DNA from: Thiobacillus sp.
Lineage (GTDB): Bacteria > Pseudomonadota > Gammaproteobacteria > Burkholderiales > Thiobacillaceae
Reading direction: 5' to 3'
NCBI GenBank assembly: GCA_020217265.1
Contig: JAIWOS010000159.1
Coordinates: 1-10,000 of the forward strand
DNA: 10,000 nt
Both the position numbers and the translations under genes were made by a program. Position 1 is the stretch's first letter; every line of letters begins with the position of its first letter. Below are positions 107 through 10,000 of this stretch, in pieces. Below the pieces are notes generated by a model. It was not told the DNA's origin, made no database searches, and saw only the letters and a list, made by a program, of their open reading frames with translations.

Positions 107-122
107 GCTGGCTCAGGCCAGC
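107..122. terminator. Small hairpin at convergent gene ends, weak terminator candidate
   Basis: GCTGGC (107-112) and GCCAGC (117-122) form a perfect 6-bp stem around a TCAG loop. The hairpin overlaps the stop codon of the minus-strand activator gene (113-115) and lies just after the stop of the left-edge gene. It could work for both strands. No T-run follows on either strand, so it is not a classical intrinsic terminator. It could be chance in GC-rich sequence. Confidence 0.25.
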
Positions 123-1414
123 TTGCGGTAGAGGGTGCGCTCGCTGATACCAAGCCTGGCGGCGAGCGATTTGCGGTCGCCGCCATGGCGTGCCAGCGCC
201 CATTGCAGATAGCGCCGTTCGGCCACCTCCAGCGGCACGACCTCGTCCGCGGCCGCCACCTCGCCCTGCCCGGCCACTTCGGGCGGCAGGTGCCCCGGCA
301 GCAGCACGTCGCCATCCGCCATCAGCATCGCGCGTTCGAGAATGTTGCGCAGTTCGCGGATATTCCCCGGAAAGTCGTAGTCCTGCAGCCGCGCGCGCGC
401 CGCGGCGGACAGGCTGTAGGCACGCCCCGGTGCCAGCCGCGTCAGCAGGGTGTCGGCCAGCAGGCCGATGTCTTCGCGCCGCTCGCGCAGCGCAGGCAGC
501 ACGATGGGAAACACGCTCAAGCGGTAATAGAGGTCGCGCCGGAACGTGCCGGCGTCCACCATCGCTTTCAGATCGCGGTGCGTCGCGGCGACGAGGCGGA
601 AATCCGCGCGGTGCGTTTCCAGTCCGCCGACGCGGCGGAAGGTGCCCGATTCCAGCAGGCGCAGCAGCTTCACCTGCAATGACAGCGGAATGTCACCCAC
701 CTCATCGAGAAAAAGCGTACCGCCCGCGGCCGATTCGACCAGGCCGATCTTGCGCTGGTTGGCGCCGGTGAACGCGCCTTTCTCATAGCCGAACAGTTCA
801 CTTTCGAACAGCGTCTCGGTCAGGCCCGAACACTCGACCACCACAAAGGGGCCGTGCTCACGCCCGCTTTGCTGGTGAATCGCCTGCGCGACCAGTTCCT
901 TGCCGGTGCCCGATTCGCCCAGGAGCAGCGCCGTGGTATCGGACGGCGCCACGCGGCGCACCAGTTCGAGCATGCGGTTGAACGCCGGCGACTTGCCGAC
1001 CAGGCCGGTTTCGACGGGAAAGCTGCTGGCCTCGCGCACCGTGCTCATGCGCTCGACAAAGTACTCGATCTTGCCCGACGCGCCGACGATGGGCGTCAGT
1101 TCCACATCCACGTGTTCCTCGCCGCGCGGCGTATGATGCAGGTGCAGTACGCGGTTCGGCTCGCCGCTGACACGGCTGGCAGCCAGGGGACAGAATTCGC
1201 CACATTCGTCGCACGGCCGGCTGTAGCCGTGCGACACGGAATAGCAGGTTTGCCCGACCACGTCGCGGCCCGATGAAAATATGCGGCGATAGGCCGCATT
1301 CGCAGCAAGAATCCGGTAATCGCCATCCATCACGATCTGCGGATCGGGATGCGTTTCCAGAAAACTGATGAGCTCGTTCGTGGGGGACATGCGCGACACT
1401 GCCATTTCTGTCAT
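113..1414 (-). CDS. Sigma-54-dependent transcriptional activator: cysteine-rich PAS sensor, AAA+ and Fis-type HTH
   Basis: This is an enhancer-binding protein that uses ATP hydrolysis to open promoters held by sigma-54 RNA polymerase. Residues about 13-125 are a PAS-like sensor with four cysteines in the pattern C57-X10-C68-X2-C71-X3-C75. The AAA+ domain (about 138-365) has Walker A GESGTGKE (166-173), the sigma-54 contact loop GAFTGA (213-218), Walker [12 protein letters not shown] (231-241) and an arginine-rich segment, [13 protein letters not shown] (291-303). A Fis-type helix-turn-helix ends the protein ([22 protein letters not shown] region, 412-433). There is no receiver domain, so it probably senses a ligand or redox state directly and not phosphorylation. 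All activator motifs are intact. It is divergent from the cyd operon, which has a -24/-12 promoter, so that operon is its likely target (inference). Start choice is uncertain: Met1, Met4 and Met9 are all possible and none has a clear Shine-Dalgarno. Met1 gives the longest form. Confidence 0.93.
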
Positions 1415-1470
1415 GATTTATTTTTATATTTTGCCACATCTGGCGAGACAGAAAATAACCTACTTGCATT

Positions 1471-1529: not shown

Positions 1530-1544
1530 TGGCACGGGCCTTGC
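1530..1544 (+). promoter_or_regulatory. Sigma-54 (-24/-12) promoter of the cyd-sqr operon
   Basis: TGGCACGGGCCTTGC matches the sigma-54 consensus TGGCACG-N4-TTGC exactly, with the invariant GG at 1531-1532 and GC at 1543-1544 at correct spacing. The base after TTGC is G instead of the preferred A or T. It points towards cydP, and a sigma-54 activator gene lies next door. By the usual geometry, transcription should start near 1555-1558, which is at or just before the first cydP start codons. Confidence 0.87.
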
Positions 1545-1562: not shown

Positions 1563-1748
1563 ATGAAACTGCCTCTCCCCGTTTTTCTGCAGAACCGGCT
1601 GGGTCGGGAAATCGCCCTCGCCATCGCGATCAAGCTCGTGGTGATCGCGGCGATCTTTTTCGCTTTCTTTCATGGCAACACCGTAGCCACCGATCCCGAC
1701 GCTGTCGCGGAGCGGCTTGCCAACCCCCAACAACAAACCACGCATTAA
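1563..1748 (+). CDS. cydP: Cytochrome bd oxidase putative small subunit CydP
   Basis: A 61-residue protein with a basic N-terminal stretch (NRLGREIA, 11-18), one hydrophobic helix (about 17-36, ending IFFAFFHG) and a polar tail. This pattern (arginine-rich lead, helix ending in aromatic FFAFF) and the place just upstream of cydA match the small CydP family, which is associated with cytochrome bd operons; its exact role is not settled. ATG 1563 was chosen because GAGGGA (1551-1556) lies 6 bases before it. The in-frame ATG at 1557 would add two residues but abuts that Shine-Dalgarno. If the sigma-54 start lies near 1556, most of the Shine-Dalgarno would be outside the transcript and translation would be near-leaderless. 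It ends 15 bases before cydA. Confidence 0.75.
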   Translation: MKLPLPVFLQNRLGREIALAIAIKLVVIAAIFFAFFHGNTVATDPDAVAERLANPQQQTTH

Positions 1749-1763
1749 ACCCAAGGAGCGCCC

Positions 1764-3356
1764 ATGCTGACCGAAGAACTCGTTGACCTTTCCAGGCTGC
1801 AATTTGCCGTCACCGCGCTGTATCACTTCCTGTTCGTCCCGTTGACGCTGGGGCTCGCGTTCATTCTGGTGATCATGGAACTCACCTACGTGATCACCGA
1901 CCGCCCGATCTACAAGGACATGGTGCGCTTCTGGGGCAGGCTGTTCGGCATCAACTTCGCGCTGGGGGTGACCACCGGCATCACCATGGAATTCCAGTTC
2001 GGCACCAACTGGGCGTATTACTCGCACTACGTCGGCGACATTTTCGGCGCGCCGCTGGCGATCGAGGGGCTGATGGCGTTCTTCCTCGAATCGACCTTCA
2101 TCGGCCTGTTCTTCTTCGGCTGGGACCGGCTCAACAAGTGGCAGCATTTCATGGTCACGGTGCTGATGGCGCTGGGCTCCAACCTCTCCGCGCTGTGGAT
2201 CCTGATCGCCAACGGCTGGATGCAGAACCCGGTCGGCGCGGAGTTTTCCTTCGTCACCATGCGCATGGAAATGACCGATTTCTGGGCCATCGTTTTCAAC
2301 CCCGACGCGCAGGCCAAGTTCGTGCATACCGTGTCGGCCGGTTACGTCACCGCGTCGTTGTTCGTGCTCGGCATTTCCAGCTGGTATCTCCTGAAGGGGC
2401 GCGATCTCGACTTCGCACGCCGCTCGTTCCGCATTGCCGCCGGTTTCGGCTTCGCCTCCGCGCTGTCGGTGATCGTGCTGGGCGACGAATCGGGCTACAC
2501 CGTCGGCGAGGCGCAGCAGACCAAGATGGCGGCGATCGAGGCGATGTGGGAAACCGAGCCTGCGCCCGCCGCGTTCACGCTGTTCGCGTTGCCCAATCAG
2601 AAAGCCGAGCGCAACGATTACGAACTGCAGATTCCCTACGTGCTCGGTTTGATCGGTACGCGCTCGCTCACCAAGGAGTTGCCCGGCATCAAGGAAATCA
2701 AGGAAAAGAACCGCGCGCGCATCGAGTCCGGCATCCAGGCCGTCGTCGCGCTGGAAAAACTGCGCAAGAACCGCGACGACTGGGCTGCCCGCTCGCAGTT
2801 CGATTTGCACAAAGCCGATCTCGGTTTCGGCCTGCTGCTGAAGAAGTACACCGTGGACGTCTCCCAGGCCACGCCCGAGATGATCCAGAAGGCGGTGGAC
2901 GACACCATCCCGAAGGTGGCGCCGCTGTTCTGGAGCTTCCGCATCATGGTCGCGCTGGGCTTCGCCTTCCTGCTGCTGTTCTCGCTGGCGCTGTTCTATT
3001 CGGTGAAGGGTAACTTCATCGAGAAGAAGTGGCTCTTGCGCTGGGCGTTCTGGTTCATTCCCATGCCCTGGATCGCGGCCGAGCTTGGCTGGGTCGTCGC
3101 CGAATACGGCCGCCAGCCGTGGACGATCTACGGCGTGCTGCCCACCCACCTGTCGGTGTCGAACCTCACGCCGGCCAACATCTACGGTTCGCTGGCGGGC
3201 TTCGTCGGCTTCTACACCGTGCTGCTCGTCGTCGAAATGTACTTGATGACCAAGTACGCGCGTCAGGGTCCGGCCAGCCTGGGCACCGGTAAGTATCACG
3301 GCGAAAAAGCATCCGGCGGCGCCCTGCCCGCAGACGCACCGGCACAGAAAATCTAA
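1764..3356 (+). CDS. cydA: Cytochrome bd quinol oxidase subunit I (CydA)
   Basis: Subunit I of the membrane bd oxidase carries haems b558, b595 and d and oxidises quinol at the periplasmic face while reducing O2 to water. The 530 residues align closely with E. coli CydA as I recall it, offset by two. Expected residues are present: His21 (b595 side), His188 and Met395 (b558 ligands), Glu101 and Glu109 (proton path), Lys254 and Glu259 in the Q-loop (TKMAAIEA), GWMQNP (151-156) and AEYGRQPW (446-453). The Q-loop region is the long, E. coli-type form, including a charged stretch around 305-350. AAGGAG at 1753-1758 sets the start. cydB follows 9 bases after the stop. No defect is visible. Confidence 0.98.
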   Translation: MLTEELVDLSRLQFAVTALYHFLFVPLTLGLAFILVIMELTYVITDRPIYKDMVRFWGRLFGINFALGVTTGITMEFQFGTNWAYYSHYVGDIFGAPLAIEGLMAFFLESTFIGLFFFGWDRLNKWQHFMVTVLMALGSNLSALWILIANGWMQNPVGAEFSFVTMRMEMTDFWAIVFNPDAQAKFVHTVSAGYVTASLFVLGISSWYLLKGRDLDFARRSFRIAAGFGFASALSVIVLGDESGYTVGEAQQTKMAAIEAMWETEPAPAAFTLFALPNQKAERNDYELQIPYVLGLIGTRSLTKELPGIKEIKEKNRARIESGIQAVVALEKLRKNRDDWAARSQFDLHKADLGFGLLLKKYTVDVSQATPEMIQKAVDDTIPKVAPLFWSFRIMVALGFAFLLLFSLALFYSVKGNFIEKKWLLRWAFWFIPMPWIAAELGWVVAEYGRQPWTIYGVLPTHLSVSNLTPANIYGSLAGFVGFYTVLLVVEMYLMTKYARQGPASLGTGKYHGEKASGGALPADAPAQKI

Positions 3357-3365
3357 GGAGCTGAC

Positions 3366-4502
3366 ATGGATTACGAAACCCTCAAACTGATCTGGTGGCT
3401 GCTGGTCGGCGTGCTGCTGGTGGGCTTTGCCATCATGGACGGCCACGACATGGGCATGGGCGTGCTCTTGCCCTTCGTCGGCAAGACCGACCTCGAACGC
3501 CGCGCCGTGATCAACACCGTCGCCCCGCACTGGGACGGCAACCAGGTGTGGTTCATCACCGCGGGCGGGGCGATCTTCGCCGCCTGGCCGCTGGTCTATG
3601 CCACCGCCTTCTCGGGCTTTTACTGGGCGATGATGGCCGCGCTGTGGGCGCTGTTCTTCCGCCCGGTCGGCTTCGACTACCGCTCCAAGATCAAGAACCC
3701 GACCTGGCGCAACACCTGGGACTGGGGCCTCTTCATCGGCGGGGCGGTGCCGCCGATCATCTTCGGCGTGGCCTTCGGTAATTTGTTGTTGGGCGTGCCC
3801 TTCCACTTCAACGACCTGATGATGTCCACCTACACCGGCAGCTTCTGGGCGCTGCTCAACCCCTTTGCGCTCTTGGCCGGGGTGGTGAGCCTGGCGATGA
3901 TCACGACGCAGGGCGCCAACTATCTGATGATGCGCACCGAAGGCGACATCTACCGCCGCGTGCGCGCCGCCAGCCTGATCTTCGCGGCGCTGGCCATCGT
4001 CACCTTCGCCCTGGCGGGCGTGTGGGTCGCCAACGGCATCCCCGGCTACGTCATCACCAGCGCGGTCGATCCCAATGCCTTGCCCGACCCGCTCGCCAAG
4101 ACGGTCGAGGTTTCCGCCGGCGCGTGGATGCACAACTACACGCAGTACGCCTGGGCGAAGTGGGTGCCGATCGCCGCCTTTGCCGCGCTTCTCGCCAGCA
4201 TCGTGTTCTCGCGCCTCAACCAGGCCGGGCTTGCGTTCTGGTCGTCGTCGATCGCCTGCGCCGGCATCATCGGCACGGCGGGCGTGTCGATGTTCCCCTT
4301 CATCATGCCCTCGTCCACCGACCCGCGCTCCAGCCTCACCGTGTACGACGCCGTGTCCTCGCACCTCACGCTCGGCCTCATGCTCGGCGCCACGGTCATC
4401 TTCATGCCGCTGATCGTGTTCTACACCTCGTGGGCCTACAAGGTGATGTGGGGCAAGGTGACGACGGAGTACATCGCCGCCAACGACAAATCGGTCTATT
4501 GA
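3366..4502 (+). CDS. cydB: Cytochrome bd quinol oxidase subunit II (CydB)
   Basis: Subunit II pairs with CydA in the inner membrane and is needed for haem d/b595 assembly and proton supply. The 378 residues match the E. coli length (379). They keep the hallmark stretches MDGHDMGMG (24-32, Asp25 and Asp28), APHWDGNQVW (53-62, Asp57), FFRPVGFDYRSK (97-108), LLNPFALLAGV (163-173), TQGANYLMMR (181-190) and MFPFIMPSS (309-317). Several hydrophobic helices fill the rest. TAAGGAG (3354-3360) overlaps the cydA stop and serves as ribosome site, so the two subunits are closely coupled. A DUF2141 gene, not cydX, follows after 10 bases, which is unusual. Confidence 0.98.
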   Translation: MDYETLKLIWWLLVGVLLVGFAIMDGHDMGMGVLLPFVGKTDLERRAVINTVAPHWDGNQVWFITAGGAIFAAWPLVYATAFSGFYWAMMAALWALFFRPVGFDYRSKIKNPTWRNTWDWGLFIGGAVPPIIFGVAFGNLLLGVPFHFNDLMMSTYTGSFWALLNPFALLAGVVSLAMITTQGANYLMMRTEGDIYRRVRAASLIFAALAIVTFALAGVWVANGIPGYVITSAVDPNALPDPLAKTVEVSAGAWMHNYTQYAWAKWVPIAAFAALLASIVFSRLNQAGLAFWSSSIACAGIIGTAGVSMFPFIMPSSTDPRSSLTVYDAVSSHLTLGLMLGATVIFMPLIVFYTSWAYKVMWGKVTTEYIAANDKSVY

Positions 4503-4512
4503 GCAAGCCATC

Positions 4513-4926
4513 ATGCTGAATCCGACACATCTCGTTTTACCGCTGATGCTTGCCGCCACCGGCGCGCAGGCGGCCACGCTCACCGTCAACCTCGATGGCG
4601 TTCAGCCCGGCGGCGGCGCGCTCACCGTGCTGCTGTTCGACCGTGCCGACGGCTTTCCCAAGGAAGCCAAAGCCCGCGCCCGCCACACGCTGCCCGCGGG
4701 CAGCCGCGCCATCGCGCTGGAAGGCCTGAAGCCCGGCGACTACGCCGTCTTGGCCTACCACGACGAAAACGGCAACGGCGAGCTCGACCGTTTTCTCGGC
4801 ATGATCCCCAAGGAAGGCTGGGGGCTGTCGAACAACCCCAAGGTCAGCGGCAAGCCTGCCTTCAAGGATGCCGCCATCGCGCTGCCGGAATCCGGCGCCG
4901 CGACCACGATCCAACTTGATTACTGA
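4513..4926 (+). CDS. Secreted DUF2141-family protein
   Basis: This 137-residue protein has a likely signal peptide (1-20, hydrophobic core LVLPLMLAA, cleavage near AQA|AT), so it should be periplasmic or outer-membrane associated. The mature part looks beta-rich and carries the DUF2141 hallmarks: GDYAVLAYHDENGNGELD (75-92), then FLGMIPKEGWGLSNNP (94-109). The DENGNGELD segment resembles a calcium-binding loop, but binding is inference. The biochemical role of the family is unknown. The gene sits between cydB and cydX, so its product may be made together with the oxidase. The ribosome site is weak (GAGCAAG near the cydB stop), which suggests coupling to cydB translation. Codon use matches the operon. 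Confidence 0.85.
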   Translation: MLNPTHLVLPLMLAATGAQAATLTVNLDGVQPGGGALTVLLFDRADGFPKEAKARARHTLPAGSRAIALEGLKPGDYAVLAYHDENGNGELDRFLGMIPKEGWGLSNNPKVSGKPAFKDAAIALPESGAATTIQLDY

Positions 4927-4937
4927 AAGGAATCGCC

Positions 4938-5063
4938 ATGTGGTATTTCGCCTGGATTCTCGGAGTCACCATGGCCGTGCTGCTCGCCTCGATGAGCGCG
5001 ATGATGTGCGATGCCAAGGAATGCGCGCTCGACGAAGCGCGCAAGCAAAATCCGGATGCCTGA
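4938..5063 (+). CDS. cydX: Cytochrome bd small subunit CydX (YbgT family)
   Basis: A 41-residue protein beginning MWYFAWILG, identical to the start of E. coli CydX as I recall it, followed by a single hydrophobic helix (about 2-23). CydX binds CydA and stabilises the haems of the bd oxidase. A Shine-Dalgarno, GAAAGGA (4925-4931), lies 6 bases before the ATG and overlaps the DUF2141 stop. Here cydX is separated from cydB by the DUF2141 gene. After the helix, the charged tail holds Cys24 and Cys29 (CDAKEC), which the E. coli tail lacks. A hairpin overlaps its stop codon. Confidence 0.93.
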   Translation: MWYFAWILGVTMAVLLASMSAMMCDAKECALDEARKQNPDA

Positions 5064-5074
5064 ACGCAGGCATC
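5055..5074 (+). other. Perfect 8-bp RNA hairpin over the cydX stop codon
   Basis: GATGCCTG (5055-5062) pairs exactly with CAGGCATC (5067-5074) around the tetraloop AACG. The stop codon (5061-5063) is inside the structure. No T-run follows, so it is not an intrinsic terminator, and a good ribosome site (5097-5101) for the next gene lies downstream. It may be an mRNA processing or stability element that sets different levels for the cyd genes and the downstream genes (inference). Confidence 0.55.
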
Positions 5075-5106
5075 AGCCAACCCATCCAGTCAAACCAGGA
5101 GCTTTC

Positions 5107-5598
5107 ATGAAACGCCTTGCACTTCCCGTTTTGCTGTTCACCCTGGGCCTGGGCATTGCCCACGCCGACAACACCCCGCAGGCCAACCCGCGGGCGGTCG
5201 TCGTCGAAGACATCAGCCGCGCCGACTTTGCCGGCACCGTTGCCGCGCTCAAGTCCCAGCTCACCGCCGACGGCTGGAATCTCGTCGCCGAGATCGACAT
5301 CGGCGCGCGGCTGGCGAAAAAGAACGTCAACCTGCCGGGCGGCCTGGTCATTCTCGAATTCACCAGCGGCGGCGCCACCATTCCGCTGCTGAAAAACGAG
5401 TCCACCCGCTACGTCGCCGGCCTCATGCCGTGCAGTCTCTCGGTCTACGCGAAAGACGACGGCCGCGTCGTCGTGTCGCGCATGAACGCCGGCGCGATGG
5501 CGGGCATGATGGAACCCAAGGTCGCCGAGGTGCTGAAACAGTCGTCCGCACGCATGGATGTCAGCATCGCCGCCGCACTCGCCCGCGCCGGCAGCTGA
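5107..5598 (+). CDS. Secreted DUF302-domain protein
   Basis: A 163-residue protein with a signal peptide (1-20, cleavage near AHA|DN), so probably periplasmic. The rest fits the DUF302 fold: an N-terminal segment with DFAGTVAALKSQLTADGWNLVAE (40-62), EIDIGARLAKKN (62-73), a central ILEF strand, and LMPCSLSVYAKDDG (106-119) followed by VVVSRMNAG (121-129). Cys109 lies in the conserved PC position of the family. The domain has no settled biochemical function. An upstream in-frame ATG at 5011 would give a longer product overlapping cydX. The start at 5107 is preferred because AGGAG (5097-5101) is 5 bases before it and it opens directly into the signal peptide. It lies 43 bases after cydX, the largest gap in the operon. 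Confidence 0.87.
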   Translation: MKRLALPVLLFTLGLGIAHADNTPQANPRAVVVEDISRADFAGTVAALKSQLTADGWNLVAEIDIGARLAKKNVNLPGGLVILEFTSGGATIPLLKNESTRYVAGLMPCSLSVYAKDDGRVVVSRMNAGAMAGMMEPKVAEVLKQSSARMDVSIAAALARAGS

Positions 5599-5626
5599 TC
5601 CCCACACTTTCCAGACAGGAAGCCCC

Positions 5627-6772
5627 ATGAGCCAACGCATCATCATCCTCGGCGCAGGTTTCGCCGCGCTCACCGCCGTGCGCGAACTGCGCCGCCGCGC
5701 GCCCGATGCCCGCATCGCGCTCATCGCGCCGAAGGCCGAGCTGATGTACTACCCGAGCCTGATCTGGGTGCCTGCGGGTTTGCGGCGCGGCGACGATCTC
5801 AGGATCGATGTCTCGGGCTTTCTTTCCGCGCACAAGGTCGAGTTTCATGCCGCCCGGGTCACCGGCCTGGCGGATCACGGCCGCACCGTGCTGACCGACA
5901 ACGGCACCTACACCAACGACGCACTGCTGATCGCCAGCGGCGGACGCTTTCTCAAGGCGCTGCCCGGCATCGAGCATGCGCTGACGATCTGCGAAGGCGC
6001 CCCGGCGGCAGAGGCGATCCGCGAACGGCTGACGACAATGGACGGCGGCAGCATCGCCTTCGGCTTTGCCACCAACCCCAAGGAACAGGGCGCGATGCGC
6101 GGCGGCCCGATGTTCGAATTGCTGTTCGGCATCGACACCCTGCTTCGCAAACAGGGTCGGCGCGAGAAATTCAAACTCACTTTCTTCAGCCCCGCAAAGG
6201 AGCCGGGTAAACGCCTGGGTGACAAGGCAGTGGCCGGTCTGCTGCGCGAGATGGAGAAGCGTGGTATCGCCACCCATCTCGGCCACAAGCTTACCGGCTT
6301 CGAGGCCGACCGCGTCAAGACCGAAGGCGGCGAGGTGCCCGCCGACCTCATCCTCTTCATGCCCGGCATGACCGGCTCGGCGTGGGCGGGTGAATCCGGC
6401 TTGGTGCTTTCGGACGGCGGCTTCTTCAAGGCCGACGCGCACTGCCGTGTGGAGGGTGCCGACCGCGTCTTCGTCGCGGGCGATGCAGGCAGCTACCCCG
6501 GCCCCGACTGGCTGCCCAAGCAGGCGCACATGGCTGACCTGCAGGCGCGTGCCGCCGCCGAAAACCTGCTCGCTGCGCTCGACGGCAAGCCGCCAGTCGC
6601 CAGCCCCAAACCCGAACTGATCTGCATCGTCGACACGCTCGATCGCGGCATCCTGGTCTACCGCGACGAGAAGCGCGCGCTGATCCTGCCGCCCTGCCGC
6701 CTGTTCCACTGGGCCAAGCGCTTCTTCGAATGGATGTACCTGCGTCCCTACCGCAAGGCGAAACCGGCATGA
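5627..6772 (+). CDS. FAD-dependent oxidoreductase, SQR/FCSD-like, missing one SQR cysteine
   Basis: A 381-residue flavoprotein of the two-dinucleotide-binding-domain family. The N-terminal IIILGAGFAA (5-14) is a Rossmann FAD motif, VFVAGDAGSYPG (281-292) is the second FAD contact, and WLPKQAHMADLQARAAAENL (295-314) is typical of the SQR/flavocytochrome c group. The C-terminal end, FHWAKRFFEWMYLRPYR (360-376), looks like an amphipathic membrane anchor, so a quinone acceptor is likely. By eye against the true sqr downstream, Cys122 and Cys333 correspond to SQR Cys128 and Cys354, but the Cys160 position (ASCFGPAYE) reads AMRGGPMFE, with no cysteine. It may therefore not make polysulfide as SQR does; the substrate is unknown. 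Start 5627 is supported by AGGAAG (5617-5622), and an upstream in-frame ATG (5558) would overlap the DUF302 gene. Its stop overlaps the YbgE-family start as ATGA. Confidence 0.85.
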   Translation: MSQRIIILGAGFAALTAVRELRRRAPDARIALIAPKAELMYYPSLIWVPAGLRRGDDLRIDVSGFLSAHKVEFHAARVTGLADHGRTVLTDNGTYTNDALLIASGGRFLKALPGIEHALTICEGAPAAEAIRERLTTMDGGSIAFGFATNPKEQGAMRGGPMFELLFGIDTLLRKQGRREKFKLTFFSPAKEPGKRLGDKAVAGLLREMEKRGIATHLGHKLTGFEADRVKTEGGEVPADLILFMPGMTGSAWAGESGLVLSDGGFFKADAHCRVEGADRVFVAGDAGSYPGPDWLPKQAHMADLQARAAAENLLAALDGKPPVASPKPELICIVDTLDRGILVYRDEKRALILPPCRLFHWAKRFFEWMYLRPYRKAKPA

Positions 6773-7056
6773 CGGGCGTTGCCGATCGCGCTTGGGCGCG
6801 CGGCGTCTCGCTCGTCGCCGCATTCCTGCTGATGCTGCTCGTCACGCTGTTTCCGCGACCGCTCACCGCCGAGGATGGCAGCCCCATCGGCCACGGCACG
6901 CTCATGCTCATCATGTGGGGCATGTCGGCAGGCTTCGTGCACGGCGTCGGTTTCGTGCCGAGAAATGCCCTGCTCCGCGTGCTGCTCGGCCCCTGGGCGG
7001 CGTGGGCATGTCTCGCTGTCGGCCTGTTTTTCTACGTCCGTTATTTCCTGAGGTAA
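6769..7056 (+). CDS. ybgE: Cyd operon protein, YbgE family
   Basis: A 95-residue membrane protein with three likely helices (about 12-29, 42-61, 72-90). The middle helix and loop IMWGMSAGFVHGVGFVPR (48-65) match E. coli YbgE, whose sequence I recall as LLMWAVCAGVIHGVGFRP. YbgE is encoded with cytochrome bd in many proteobacteria; its exact role is not established. The start at 6769 is chosen from the ATGA overlap with the preceding stop and AAGG at 6755-6758. A longer in-frame form from 6730 would lie within the flavoprotein gene and adds a non-hydrophobic lead. Its presence confirms that the intervening DUF302 and flavoprotein genes belong to the cyd transcription unit. Only 3 bases separate it from the haemoglobin gene. 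Confidence 0.88.
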   Translation: MTGVADRAWARGVSLVAAFLLMLLVTLFPRPLTAEDGSPIGHGTLMLIMWGMSAGFVHGVGFVPRNALLRVLLGPWAAWACLAVGLFFYVRYFLR

Positions 7057-7059
7057 CCC

Positions 7060-7482
7060 ATGTCCACGCATTACCAGCGTATCGGCGGCGAACCCGCCCT
7101 GCGCCAGCTTACCCGCCGTTTCTACGAAATCATGGATGAACTGCCGGAAACCTACGCGCTGCGCAAGCTGCACCCGGAAGATCTTTCGGAATCCGCCGAC
7201 AAGCTGTTCGAATTCCTGTCCGGCTGGACGGGCGGCCCGCAACTCTTCATCGAGAAACACGGCCACCCCATGCTGAGGCGGCGCCATATGCCCTTCAGCA
7301 TCGGCCGCGAGGAGCGCGACCAGTGGCTGCTGTGCATGAAGCTGGCGCTGGAGGAGGTTGTGCCGGAGGCGACGCTGCGCGACGAACTCTATGCCGCGCT
7401 CGCCCGCGTGGCCGACCACATGCGCAACCGTCCGGAAGGAGGATACGCCGAAACGGCCGCGTCCTCGTGTACCGCCCACTGA
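7060..7482 (+). CDS. Group II truncated haemoglobin
   Basis: A 140-residue haem protein of the 2-on-2 globin fold, group II (TrHbO-like). The signatures are YQRIGGEPALRQL (5-17), FYEIMDELPE (21-30, Tyr22 at the B10 place), LHPEDLSESADKLFEFLSGW (37-56), the GGPQLFIEKHGHPMLRRRHMPF stretch (58-79) with His76 as likely proximal ligand, and RDQWLLCM (86-93) with Trp89 at the G8 place. Such proteins bind O2, NO or related ligands and sometimes reduce them; the physiological role here is inference. GAGG (7050-7053) lies 6 bases before the start and overlaps the end of the YbgE-family gene. The C-terminal tail (ETAASSCTAH) extends beyond the globin core. Confidence 0.94.
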   Translation: MSTHYQRIGGEPALRQLTRRFYEIMDELPETYALRKLHPEDLSESADKLFEFLSGWTGGPQLFIEKHGHPMLRRRHMPFSIGREERDQWLLCMKLALEEVVPEATLRDELYAALARVADHMRNRPEGGYAETAASSCTAH

Positions 7483-7516
7483 CCGACCCCTTTCCCAACC
7501 GAACTCTCGTCCCCTC

Positions 7517-8788
7517 ATGGCCCACATCGTTATCCTCGGCGCAGGCACCGGCGGCACGCCGGCCGCCTACGAAATGCGCCAACTGCTCGACAAGTCCCAC
7601 GCCGTCACCCTCATCAACGCGTCGGAAACCTTCCAGTTCGTGCCGTCCAATCCCTGGGTGGCGCTCGGCTGGCGCAAGCCGCGCGAGGTCACGTTCGCAC
7701 TGCGCCCCTATCTCGAAAAGAAGGGCATCCACTTCATCGCCCAGCGCGCCGACAAGATCGACGCCGCCAGCAACACGATCCACCTCGCCAACGGCGAGTC
7801 GGTGAATTACGACTACCTGGTGATCGCCACCGGCCCCCGCCTCGCATTCGACCTGGTACCCGGCGCGGGCCCCGAGCACGGCCACACCGAATCGGTCTGC
7901 ACCGTCGATCACGCGCAACGCGCCTACGCCAACTATCAGGAATTCCTCAAGAATCCGGGCCCGGTCATCGTCGGCGCGCTGCCCGGCGCGTCGTGCTTCG
8001 GCCCGGCCTACGAGTACGCGATGGCGCTGGAAACCGACCTGCGCCGCCGCAAGCTGCGCCACAAGGTGCCCATCACCTACGTCACCTCCGAACCCTACAT
8101 CGGCCACCTGGGCCTGGGCGGCGTCGGCGATTCGAAAACGCTGCTGGAAAGCGAATTCCGCCAGCGCCACATCAAGTGGATCACCAACGCCAGAACCACG
8201 CGGGTGGACGCCGGGACAATGCACGTCGACGAAGTCAACGACAACGGCGAGACGATCCGCCAGCACGCGCTCGATTTCCGCTACGCGATGATGCTGCCGC
8301 CGTTCCGCGGCGTGGATGCCGTCGCCGGCGTCGAAGGCCTGTGCAACGCGGCGGGCTTCGTCAATGTCGACGAATTCCAGCGCAGCACGGCGTACCCCAA
8401 CATCTATTCGGCGGGCGTGTGCATCGCCATCCCGCCGGTCGAGCAGACACCGGTGCCCACCGGCACCCCCAAGACCGGCTACATGATCGAATCGATGGTC
8501 ACCGCCATCGTCCACAACATCGCCGACGAACTCGCCGGCAAAGCGCCCAGCCACACCGGCACCTGGAGCACCATCTGCCTCGCCGACATGGGCGATACCG
8601 GCGCGGCCTTCGTCGCCATCCCGCAGATTCCGCCGCGCAACGTGACCTGGGCGCGCAAGGGCAAGTGGGTGCACTACGCCAAGGTAGCGTTCGAGAAGTA
8701 CTTCATCCGCAAGATGAAGACCGGGAATTCGGAGCCGCTGTACGAAAAATTCGTACTGAAGGCGCTGGGCATCAAGCGCCTGAACTGA
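7517..8788 (+). CDS. sqr: Sulfide:quinone oxidoreductase (type I SQR)
   Basis: SQR is a membrane-bound FAD enzyme that oxidises sulfide to sulfur or polysulfide and passes electrons to quinone. The 423 residues strongly resemble the Acidithiobacillus ferrooxidans enzyme: MAHIVILGAGTGGTPAAYEM at the start, FQFVPSNPWVALGW (39-52), IATGPRLAF (103-111), SEPYIGHLGLGGVGDSK (191-207), PVPTGTPKTGYMIESM (312-327) and VAFEKYFIRKMK (390-401). The three catalytic-site cysteines are in place: Cys128 (ESVCTVDHA), Cys160 (GASCFGPAYE) and Cys354 (STICLADMG). The C-terminal segment gives the monotopic membrane anchor. Start 7517 opens the conserved N-terminus; no Shine-Dalgarno precedes it, as the 34-base gap is pyrimidine-rich. 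An upstream in-frame ATG at 7358 would overlap the haemoglobin gene and is rejected. It is the last gene of the operon. Confidence 0.97.
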   Translation: MAHIVILGAGTGGTPAAYEMRQLLDKSHAVTLINASETFQFVPSNPWVALGWRKPREVTFALRPYLEKKGIHFIAQRADKIDAASNTIHLANGESVNYDYLVIATGPRLAFDLVPGAGPEHGHTESVCTVDHAQRAYANYQEFLKNPGPVIVGALPGASCFGPAYEYAMALETDLRRRKLRHKVPITYVTSEPYIGHLGLGGVGDSKTLLESEFRQRHIKWITNARTTRVDAGTMHVDEVNDNGETIRQHALDFRYAMMLPPFRGVDAVAGVEGLCNAAGFVNVDEFQRSTAYPNIYSAGVCIAIPPVEQTPVPTGTPKTGYMIESMVTAIVHNIADELAGKAPSHTGTWSTICLADMGDTGAAFVAIPQIPPRNVTWARKGKWVHYAKVAFEKYFIRKMKTGNSEPLYEKFVLKALGIKRLN

Positions 8789-8827: not shown

Positions 8828-10000
8828 TCATTTCAGGGCGAGCGTCCTGCTGAAAAACGCGCCGACCTTGTCCGGCGGCAGGGGGCGCGCGAACACGTAG
8901 CCCTGGATCTCGTCGCAGCCGCGCTTCTTCAGAAAGGCCACCTGCTCCTGGGTTTCCACGCCTTCCGCCACCACGCGCATGTTGAGCGCATGCGCCAGGC
9001 GGATGATGGCGGTGGCAATCTCGGCGTCGTCGCTGTCGATCAGCACATCGTCGATCAGGCTTTTGTCGATCTTCAGCGCGTCGATCGGCATGCGCTTCAA
9101 CTGGCCGAGATTGGAGTGCCCGGTGCCGAAGTCGTCGATGTAGACGTGCAGGCCGCGCTGGCGCAGCGCATCGAGCATGGCGAAGGTGCGTTCCGGATTC
9201 TCCATCGCCGCGCTCTCGGTCACTTCCACCTGCAGATGCGACGCGTCCATGCCGGTTTCGCGCAGGATGGCATCGATATCGTCGGCGAGCCGTTCGTCGG
9301 TGAACTGGCGCGGCGACAGGTTGATCGCCACCGGCGGCGGCTCGAGCCCCGCATCGCGCCAGGCGATCCACTGCTCGCACGCCGTGCGCGCCACCCAGCG
9401 CCCGATCGGCACGATGAGTCCGGTTTCCTCCGCCACCGGGATGAACTTCTCCGGGCTGACGATGCTTCCGGAACGCGTCAGCCAGCGGATCAGCGCCTCG
9501 ATCCCAACCACCCGGCCACTGGCAAGATCGACCTTGGGCTGGTAGACGAGCGCCAGTTCACGACGATCGATGGCCTGGCGCAGGCCGTTTTCCAGCATGA
9601 GATGTTGCTGCGCCATCGTGTTGAGCTCGTCGCTGTAATACTCGAACCCGGTGCGGCGCTGCTTGGCCTGGTACATGGCGAGATCGGCCTGGCGCAAGAG
9701 GGTGTTGGCGTCCTGGCCGTCGTCGGGGTACACGCTGATGCCGATGCTGGCGCCGATGGCGTAGCGTCGCTGTTCGATCTTGAACGACTCGGCCAACGCG
9801 GCGATGAGCTTGGCGGCGACCCGGCTGGCGGCGCGCGAAGCCGGCGGGTGCGTGAGCACGACGGCGAACTCGTCGCCGCCCAGACGCGCGACGAAATCGT
9901 CGGCACGCAGCTGCTCGTCGAGCCGGCTGGCGACCACGCGCAGCACCTGGTCGCCCACCTCGTGGCCCTGCGAGTCGTTGATGTGCTTGAATCGGTCAAG
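8828..10000 (-). CDS. GGDEF-EAL cyclic-di-GMP turnover protein, N-terminus beyond the window
   Basis: The gene runs off the right edge; 390 C-terminal residues are visible, and the frame stays open to base 10000 (reading [17 protein letters not shown], a typical GGDEF-domain segment). The GGDEF motif is intact (9866-9880), with an RxxD product-inhibition site (RADD, 9896-9907) five residues before it. The EAL domain follows with GIEALIRW (EAL at 9491-9499), [47 protein letters not shown] and [12 protein letters not shown]. All usual metal and catalytic residues are present, so both diguanylate cyclase and phosphodiesterase activity are possible; the balance is not predictable here. Sensor domains, if any, lie outside. 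It converges on sqr with 39 bases between the stop codons and is probably not part of that operon. Confidence 0.96.

What the first reader, a model, noticed from the sequence alone, without database searches (positions are those of the whole stretch)
1563..8788. Single operon encodes both ends of a sulfide-to-oxygen electron chain
sqr is the last gene of a closely packed unit that begins with cydP, cydA and cydB. SQR feeds quinone and bd oxidase drains it; the E. coli bd enzyme is known to resist sulfide while haem-copper oxidases are inhibited. This suggests a dedicated sulfide respiration or detoxification module, possibly a physical complex.
Basis: partly seen in the sequence, partly recalled or inferred. 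Interest (0 to 1): 0.7.

Follow-up and report, generated by a model that had tools for sequence, protein, structure and literature searches.

The report
Sulfide-responsive respiration operon ending in sqr
A Thiobacillus operon carries a sulfide-oxidising enzyme together with a sulfide-tolerant oxygen-consuming oxidase, probably under a sulfur-sensing switch, and the same pairing recurs in other bacterial families, which suggests a wired-together way to burn toxic sulfide with oxygen.

Summary
In detail: cydP-cydA-cydB-DUF2141-cydX-DUF302-flavoprotein-ybgE-globin-sqr (1563-8788) is one co-directional unit with gaps of -4 to 43 bases. SQR is type I with its three cysteines; CydA matches E. coli bd oxidase end to end.

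A divergent sigma-54 activator carries the cysteine spacing of FisR, a sulfane-sulfur sensor. Between it and cydP lie a palindrome (1400-1413; a weaker one at 1432) and an exact sigma-54 site (1530-1544). Strong promoter matches and exact palindromes occur upstream of 20 and 25 of 44 cydA loci with the divergent regulator, and of none of 30 without it. Three paralogues of the regulator sit beside sqr.

sqr and cydA lie on one strand within 5 kb in 26 of 66 sampled genomes holding both (13 families; about 0.2 expected by chance).

Best reading: a sulfane-sulfur-induced operon that co-produces SQR and a sulfide-tolerant quinol oxidase. Against "dedicated": sqr is in only 4 of 11 same-genus operon regions. 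No evidence for a physical complex was found, nor could it be tested. Signal and co-transcription are inferred.

The parts
113..1414 (-). FisR-like sigma-54 activator: PAS_4, sigma-54 AAA, Fis-type HTH; start in relatives corresponds to the codon at 1390 rather than 1414; cysteines C57-x10-C68-x6-C75 (C49, C60, C67 from 1390)
1400..1413 (.). palindrome TGNCA-N4-TGNCA, exact; likely upstream activator site
1432..1445 (.). second palindrome, one mismatch; likely second activator site
1530..1544 (+). sigma-54 (-24/-12) promoter site, exact match to TGGCAC-N5-TTGC
1563..1748 (+). cydP, putative small subunit of bd oxidase
   Evidence: NF045611
1764..3356 (+). cydA, bd quinol oxidase subunit I, aligned end to end with E. 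coli CydA
3366..4502 (+). cydB, bd quinol oxidase subunit II
4513..4926 (+). DUF2141 protein, function unknown
4938..5063 (+). cydX, small subunit of bd oxidase
5107..5598 (+). DUF302 protein, function unknown
5627..6772 (+). SQR-like flavoprotein, substrate unknown; lacks the middle SQR cysteine
6769..7056 (+). ybgE, cyd operon membrane protein
7060..7482 (+). truncated (bacterial-like) globin
7517..8788 (+). sqr, type I sulfide:quinone oxidoreductase with C128, C160, C354

Best explanation
A sulfur-induced respiratory operon. The divergent FisR-like activator senses sulfane sulfur (persulfide/polysulfide) through its cysteine triad, binds the palindromes 85-130 bases upstream of the promoter, and drives sigma-54 transcription of the whole unit from 1530-1544. 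SQR oxidises sulfide to sulfane sulfur and passes electrons to ubiquinone; CydAB with its small subunits, which tolerates sulfide better than haem-copper oxidases do, re-oxidises the quinol with oxygen. The cell thus clears sulfide and keeps respiring when sulfide blocks its other oxidases. Shown here: anatomy, conserved sites, recurrent linkage. Inferred: the signal, binding, co-transcription, electron flow in vivo. Known from elsewhere: sulfide tolerance of bd oxidase, SQR chemistry. Not claimed: a physical complex.
For: Packed unit. SQR triad in 16 of 16 homologues, duplicates included. FisR-type triad in 62 of 64 regulators taken from cydA loci, 49 of 50 in named loci, and the 11-residue spacing of the first two equals Cys53-Cys64 of FisR, which form a tetrasulfide link (PMC9495516, passages). 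Of 48 sigma-54 activators in four genomes, 9 have the triad: 4 beside cydAB, 3 beside sqr, 2 neither; of 39 without it, 0 beside cydAB and 1 beside an sqr fragment. Sigma-54 match of at least 11 of 12: 20 of 44 loci with divergent regulator, 0 of 6 co-directional, 0 of 30 without. Exact palindrome: 25 of 44, 3 of 6, 0 of 30; among the 25 divergent loci not used to find the motif, 9. sqr-cydA on one strand within 5 kb in 18 of 41 and 8 of 25 genomes with both (about 0.11 and 0.07 expected). Rhodanese- and persulfide-dioxygenase-like genes in relatives' operons. A. baumannii: sulfide induces cydAB and, through FisR, sqr; the two predicted to be linked through quinone (PMC7315123, passages).
Against: sqr is in only 4 of 11 same-genus operon regions. 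24 of 44 loci with the divergent regulator lack a strong sigma-54 match, and 5 of 30 loci without a regulator have two or more palindromes when one mismatch is allowed. The upstream sqr-cydA layout lacks the regulator in 12 of 12 regions fetched, some short. A. baumannii FisR responds to sulfide without these cysteines, so the triad is not proof of the signal. Two triad regulators in the window's genome have neither cyd nor sqr as neighbour. The window operon has no recognised persulfide dioxygenase or rhodanese.
Confidence: 0.68

Rival explanations
1. The operon answers low oxygen, NO or general redox stress. The PAS cysteines sense something other than sulfane sulfur, bd oxidase and globin are the point, and sqr is one more quinone-reducing gene gained at the end.
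For: A truncated globin lies in the operon; cyd operons without sqr keep the same regulator, e.g. L038, L043-L046 and many outside Thiobacillus; bd oxidase is widely used at low oxygen (recalled).
Against: Triad regulators stand beside sqr in the same genomes and beside sqr without cydA in 6 of 17 control loci chosen for high SQR identity; the cysteine spacing is that of FisR; sqr-cydA linkage recurs.
Confidence: 0.2
2. sqr is an accidental passenger behind a cyd operon, with its own promoter or none that matters.
For: sqr is missing from 7 of 11 same-genus regions; it has no clear Shine-Dalgarno sequence.
Against: Linkage in 26 of 66 genomes with both genes, 13 families, two layouts; the SQR tree forces at least three changes for each layout; no promoter-like site near sqr.
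Confidence: 0.08
3. SQR docks on CydABX as one membrane sulfide oxidase that hands quinol over directly.
For: In L275, L277 and L278 the sqr gene is the next hit after cydX; an SQR-bc1-ba3 supercomplex exists in Aquifex (PMC3128077, passages).
Against: No interface evidence was obtained; sqr lies on either side of cydAB in different families with differing genes between; many cyd operons have no sqr.
Confidence: 0.08

Closest known systems
FisR-controlled sqr operons (Cupriavidus pinatubonensis; A. baumannii pdo1-sqr-tauE)
   Same: Divergent PAS/AAA/Fis sigma-54 activator, predicted sigma-54 promoter, sqr among the targets; first two sensor cysteines at the same spacing as in Cupriavidus FisR
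   Different: Here the operon is built round cydAB with sqr last and has no recognised dioxygenase; in A. baumannii cydAB lies elsewhere and is induced separately
Cytochrome bd operon cydABX-ybgE of E. coli type
   Same: cydA, cydB, cydX and ybgE families
   Different: cydP in front; DUF2141, DUF302, SQR-like flavoprotein, globin and sqr added; FisR-like sigma-54 control (regulation of the E. coli operon not examined)
Acidithiobacillus ferrooxidans SQR and bd oxidase
   Same: Closest solved SQR (3sz0); sqr and cydAB both listed as raised on sulfur media (PMC2754497, passages)
   Different: Locus tags far apart (AFE_1792 and AFE_0955-0954)
Aquifex aeolicus SQR-bc1-ba3 supercomplex
   Same: Sulfide to oxygen through SQR (PMC3128077, passages)
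   Different: Other oxidase, bc1 included, physical complex shown there only

Membership tests
FisR-type sulfane-sulfur activator | Sensor domain, sigma-54 AAA domain and Fis-type HTH | tested here: met
   PAS_4, PF00158, PF02954 over cut-offs
FisR-type sulfane-sulfur activator | Cysteines spaced as Cys53 and Cys64 of Cupriavidus FisR, plus a third (Cys71, recalled) | tested here: met
   C-x10-C-x6-C against the residue numbers in PMC9495516; the FisR sequence itself was not aligned
FisR-type sulfane-sulfur activator | Divergent from sulfide-oxidising genes with a sigma-54 promoter | tested here: met
   Divergent from the cyd-sqr unit, site at 1530-1544; sqr is the tenth gene, not the first
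FisR-type sulfane-sulfur activator | Activation by sulfane sulfur | not testable with these tools
   needs experiment
Type I SQR | Three catalytic cysteines of A. ferrooxidans SQR | tested here: met
   C128, C160 and C354 align with 3sz0 cysteines (their catalytic role is recalled), kept in 16 of 16
Type I SQR | Sulfide-dependent quinone reduction | not testable with these tools
   needs assay
Cytochrome bd (E. coli type) | CydA and CydB with a long Q-loop and CydX | tested here: met
   PF01654, TIGR00203, TIGR02106; ungapped alignment with E. coli CydA through the Q-loop region
sqr-pdo (FisR operon) module | Persulfide dioxygenase in the operon | tested here: not met
   none among the window genes; present in some relatives
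SQR-oxidase supercomplex | SQR and oxidase purify together | not testable with these tools
   single-chain prediction only; none run

The most novel reading that the evidence does not exclude
In beta- and gammaproteobacteria FisR-type persulfide sensors switch respiration directly onto bd oxidase, and SQR with CydABX works as a tailored sulfide oxidase, by a complex or by restricted quinone exchange, whose gene linkage arose several times.
Probability: 0.15. Interest if true: 0.85.

Novelty: new variant of a known kind. Interest (0 to 1): 0.55.

Why it matters
Sulfide oxidation by SQR and sulfide tolerance of bd oxidase are usually treated as separate defences joined by the quinone pool. One operon under a persulfide-sensing activator would make them one regulated pathway and add bd oxidase to the direct FisR regulon. 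A named strain, T. thioparus DSM 505, carries the arrangement, so it can be tested at once, and it would offer one reason why cydAB is sulfide-induced in some bacteria.

Tried and rejected
One cyd-dedicated SQR clade: the first tree (41 rows, 34 of them linked SQRs) suggested it; with 17 control SQRs and two loci where cydA lies about 9-10 kb away added, and one long row left out, it broke (downstream group 5 changes, at least 3 forced; upstream 3, at least 3 forced). I keep only 'several linkage events'.

The first promoter scan had an indexing error; one search replaces it. The first operon walk crashed; one search replaces it, but its walk stops early in many loci, so counts come from tblastn.

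The palindrome was found on 20 control regions, 19 of them among the 44 later counted; hence the separate count of 9 of 25. Palindromes at the three regulator-sqr pairs: no exact copy; one-mismatch sites lie in front of sqr in two (L148, L150).

Literature: the ten searches listed no paper whose title, abstract or passages I saw describe sqr in a cyd operon or FisR control of cydAB. Most subscription journals are not held; Li et al. 2017 on FisR was not read. For T. thioparus the genome paper names a bd oxidase and has no occurrence of 'sqr' in its main text. No structure was predicted.
Full report
WHAT IS THERE. The window is a 10 kb stretch of a 2.14 Mb, 84.6% complete genome; the best named relatives of its cydA are mostly Thiobacillus. 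The unit 1563-8788 is cydP, cydA, cydB, DUF2141, cydX, DUF302, SQR-like flavoprotein, ybgE, truncated globin, sqr, all on the + strand with gaps of -4 to 43 bases. A GGDEF-EAL gene follows convergently.

THE ENZYMES. CydA aligns from residue 5 to 523 with E. coli CydA. SQR aligns from 2 to 422 with A. ferrooxidans SQR and has its three cysteines (C128, C160, C354), kept in 16 of 16 homologues, which include some loci held under two ids. The flavoprotein at 5627 is a distant SQR relative (3h8i, E 1.9e-23); the middle SQR cysteine is missing, while C122, C273 and C333 are kept in 25 of 25 homologues.

THE CONTROL REGION, WHICH THE FINDING DOES NOT MENTION. The divergent gene 113-1414 encodes PAS_4, a sigma-54 activation domain and a Fis-type HTH. 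Relatives' starts correspond to the codon at 1390. Upstream lie a sigma-54 site with an exact match (1530-1544; the only site in the window with at most one mismatch, where 1.05 are expected, so the match alone proves little) and two palindromes of the form TGNCA-N4-TGNCA (1400-1413 exact, 1432-1445 one mismatch; another exact copy at 1168 lies inside the regulator gene). Across 20 control regions the palindromes and the promoter stand out from otherwise divergent sequence.

TEST WITH AND WITHOUT THE REGULATOR. Of 80 named cydA loci (the best 80 of 227 found), 44 have the regulator divergent within 4.5 kb, 6 co-directional, 30 none (some on short contigs). Sigma-54 matches of at least 11 of 12 within 500 bases upstream of cydA: 20 of 44, 0 of 6, 0 of 30; at 10 or more: 24, 1 and 2; inside cydA as a control, at 10 or more: 0 of 80. 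An exact palindrome within 700 bases: 25 of 44, 3 of 6, 0 of 30; two or more sites with at most one mismatch: 29, 3 and 5; background 47 exact copies in 1,376 kb. Since the motif came from 19 of the 44, the independent figure is 9 of the other 25. The promoter evidence is best for Thiobacillus, Sulfuriferula and close kin; most other loci lack a strong match.

WHAT THE REGULATOR SENSES. In Cupriavidus FisR sulfane sulfur makes a tetrasulfide link between Cys53 and Cys64 (PMC9495516, passages). The window regulator has the same spacing and a third cysteine seven residues on (Cys71 of FisR is recalled). The triad is in 62 of 64 regulators taken from cydA loci, 49 of 50 in named loci. Among 48 strong PF00158 matches in four genomes (the window's, T. 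thioparus, Sulfuriferula, Cupriavidus laharis; two or more of them cut by contig ends), 9 have it: 4 beside cydAB, 3 beside sqr, 2 beside neither; of the 39 without, 0 beside cydAB and 1 beside an sqr fragment, within about 3 kb. The three sqr neighbours are divergent from sqr in the window's genome, T. thioparus and Sulfuriferula; two of the three have a sigma-54 match before sqr. Regulators closer to the window's own stand beside sqr, with no cydA on the stretch, in 6 of 17 control loci that I chose for high SQR identity. On a Pseudoalteromonas xiamenensis plasmid the regulator is divergent from cydP, cydB, cydX and ybgE. Against this reading, A. baumannii FisR lacks these cysteines yet governs the sulfide response (PMC7315123, passages).

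HOW OFTEN sqr AND cydA GO TOGETHER. In 300 sampled genomes of the order, 41 have both a type I SQR (E at most 1e-60) and CydA (E at most 1e-100), the window's own not counted; in 18 of the 41 they lie on one strand within 5 kb, in 7 families. In 369 genomes of the class the figures are 25 and 8, in 6 families. I read these from the lists by hand. Chance gives about 0.11 and 0.07; kinship makes the genomes less than independent. There are two layouts: sqr downstream of cydABX, as in the window, and sqr directly upstream of cydA. Of 25 such regions fetched (25 of the 26; the other is L072), the regulator is present in 7: 5 of 5 downstream-type of the order, 2 of 8 of the class, 0 of 12 upstream-type. 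In L275, L277 and L278 sqr is the next hit after cydX. In L256, L259 and L266 the order of hits is cydA, cydB, cydX, ybgE, MBL, globin, rhodanese, sqr. The MBL gene after ybgE in L083 matches persulfide dioxygenases (ETHE1 4chl, E 1.5e-39). The SQR tree with controls forces at least three changes for each layout.

LIMITS. sqr is in the operon in 4 of 11 same-genus regions and 7 of 16 named Thiobacillus-type loci, one of them in fragments. This type of cydA is in 14 of 35 same-genus genomes, several of them incomplete (read by hand, weak and other-type matches left out). The window's genome has four COX1-family matches, some perhaps NO reductase, so bd is unlikely to be its only oxidase. Nothing here tests transcription, sensing, electron flow or a complex.

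VERDICT. The parts are known; FisR-like control of a cyd operon that carries sqr, and its recurrence, were not described in what I saw of the searches listed under Tried and rejected.

Noticed in passing
window 5627-6772: An SQR-like flavoprotein without the middle SQR cysteine but with three other cysteines kept in 25 of 25 homologues; it also lies in cyd operons of other groups (L080, L095, L103, L105, L125). Substrate unknown.
   Followed up: partly
L056 11911-13300: In a T. denitrificans MAG with 95% identical CydA, flavocytochrome c sulfide dehydrogenase-like and cytochrome c genes sit behind cydB in the operon that also ends in sqr: a second sulfide-oxidising insertion.
   Followed up: partly
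L253 2907-5618; genomes G180, G238, G311, G329: A 2.7 kb gene annotated cydB with no separate cydA in Pseudoalteromonas xiamenensis, and open frames of 935-958 aa at cydA in some genomes, suggest fused cydA-cydB genes.
   Followed up: no
G000:C145 (L213) and G000:C16 (L215): Two further triad-bearing sigma-54 activators in the window's genome; the first lies beside a gene that looks like a cytochrome c assembly protein, the second by a contig end.
   Followed up: no
L062 1963-5116: A Thiobacillus cyd operon without the regulator, strong sigma-54 site, exact palindrome or sqr: a natural comparison.
   Followed up: no
L066 17643-18296; L282, L283, L284: A Tll0287-like gene (Pfam match for L066) in cyd operons, and genes that look similar by eye between regulator and sqr in other genomes.
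   Followed up: no
window 8828-9958: The convergent GGDEF-EAL gene is kept at 80-86% identity behind the operon in several Thiobacillus loci.
   Followed up: no
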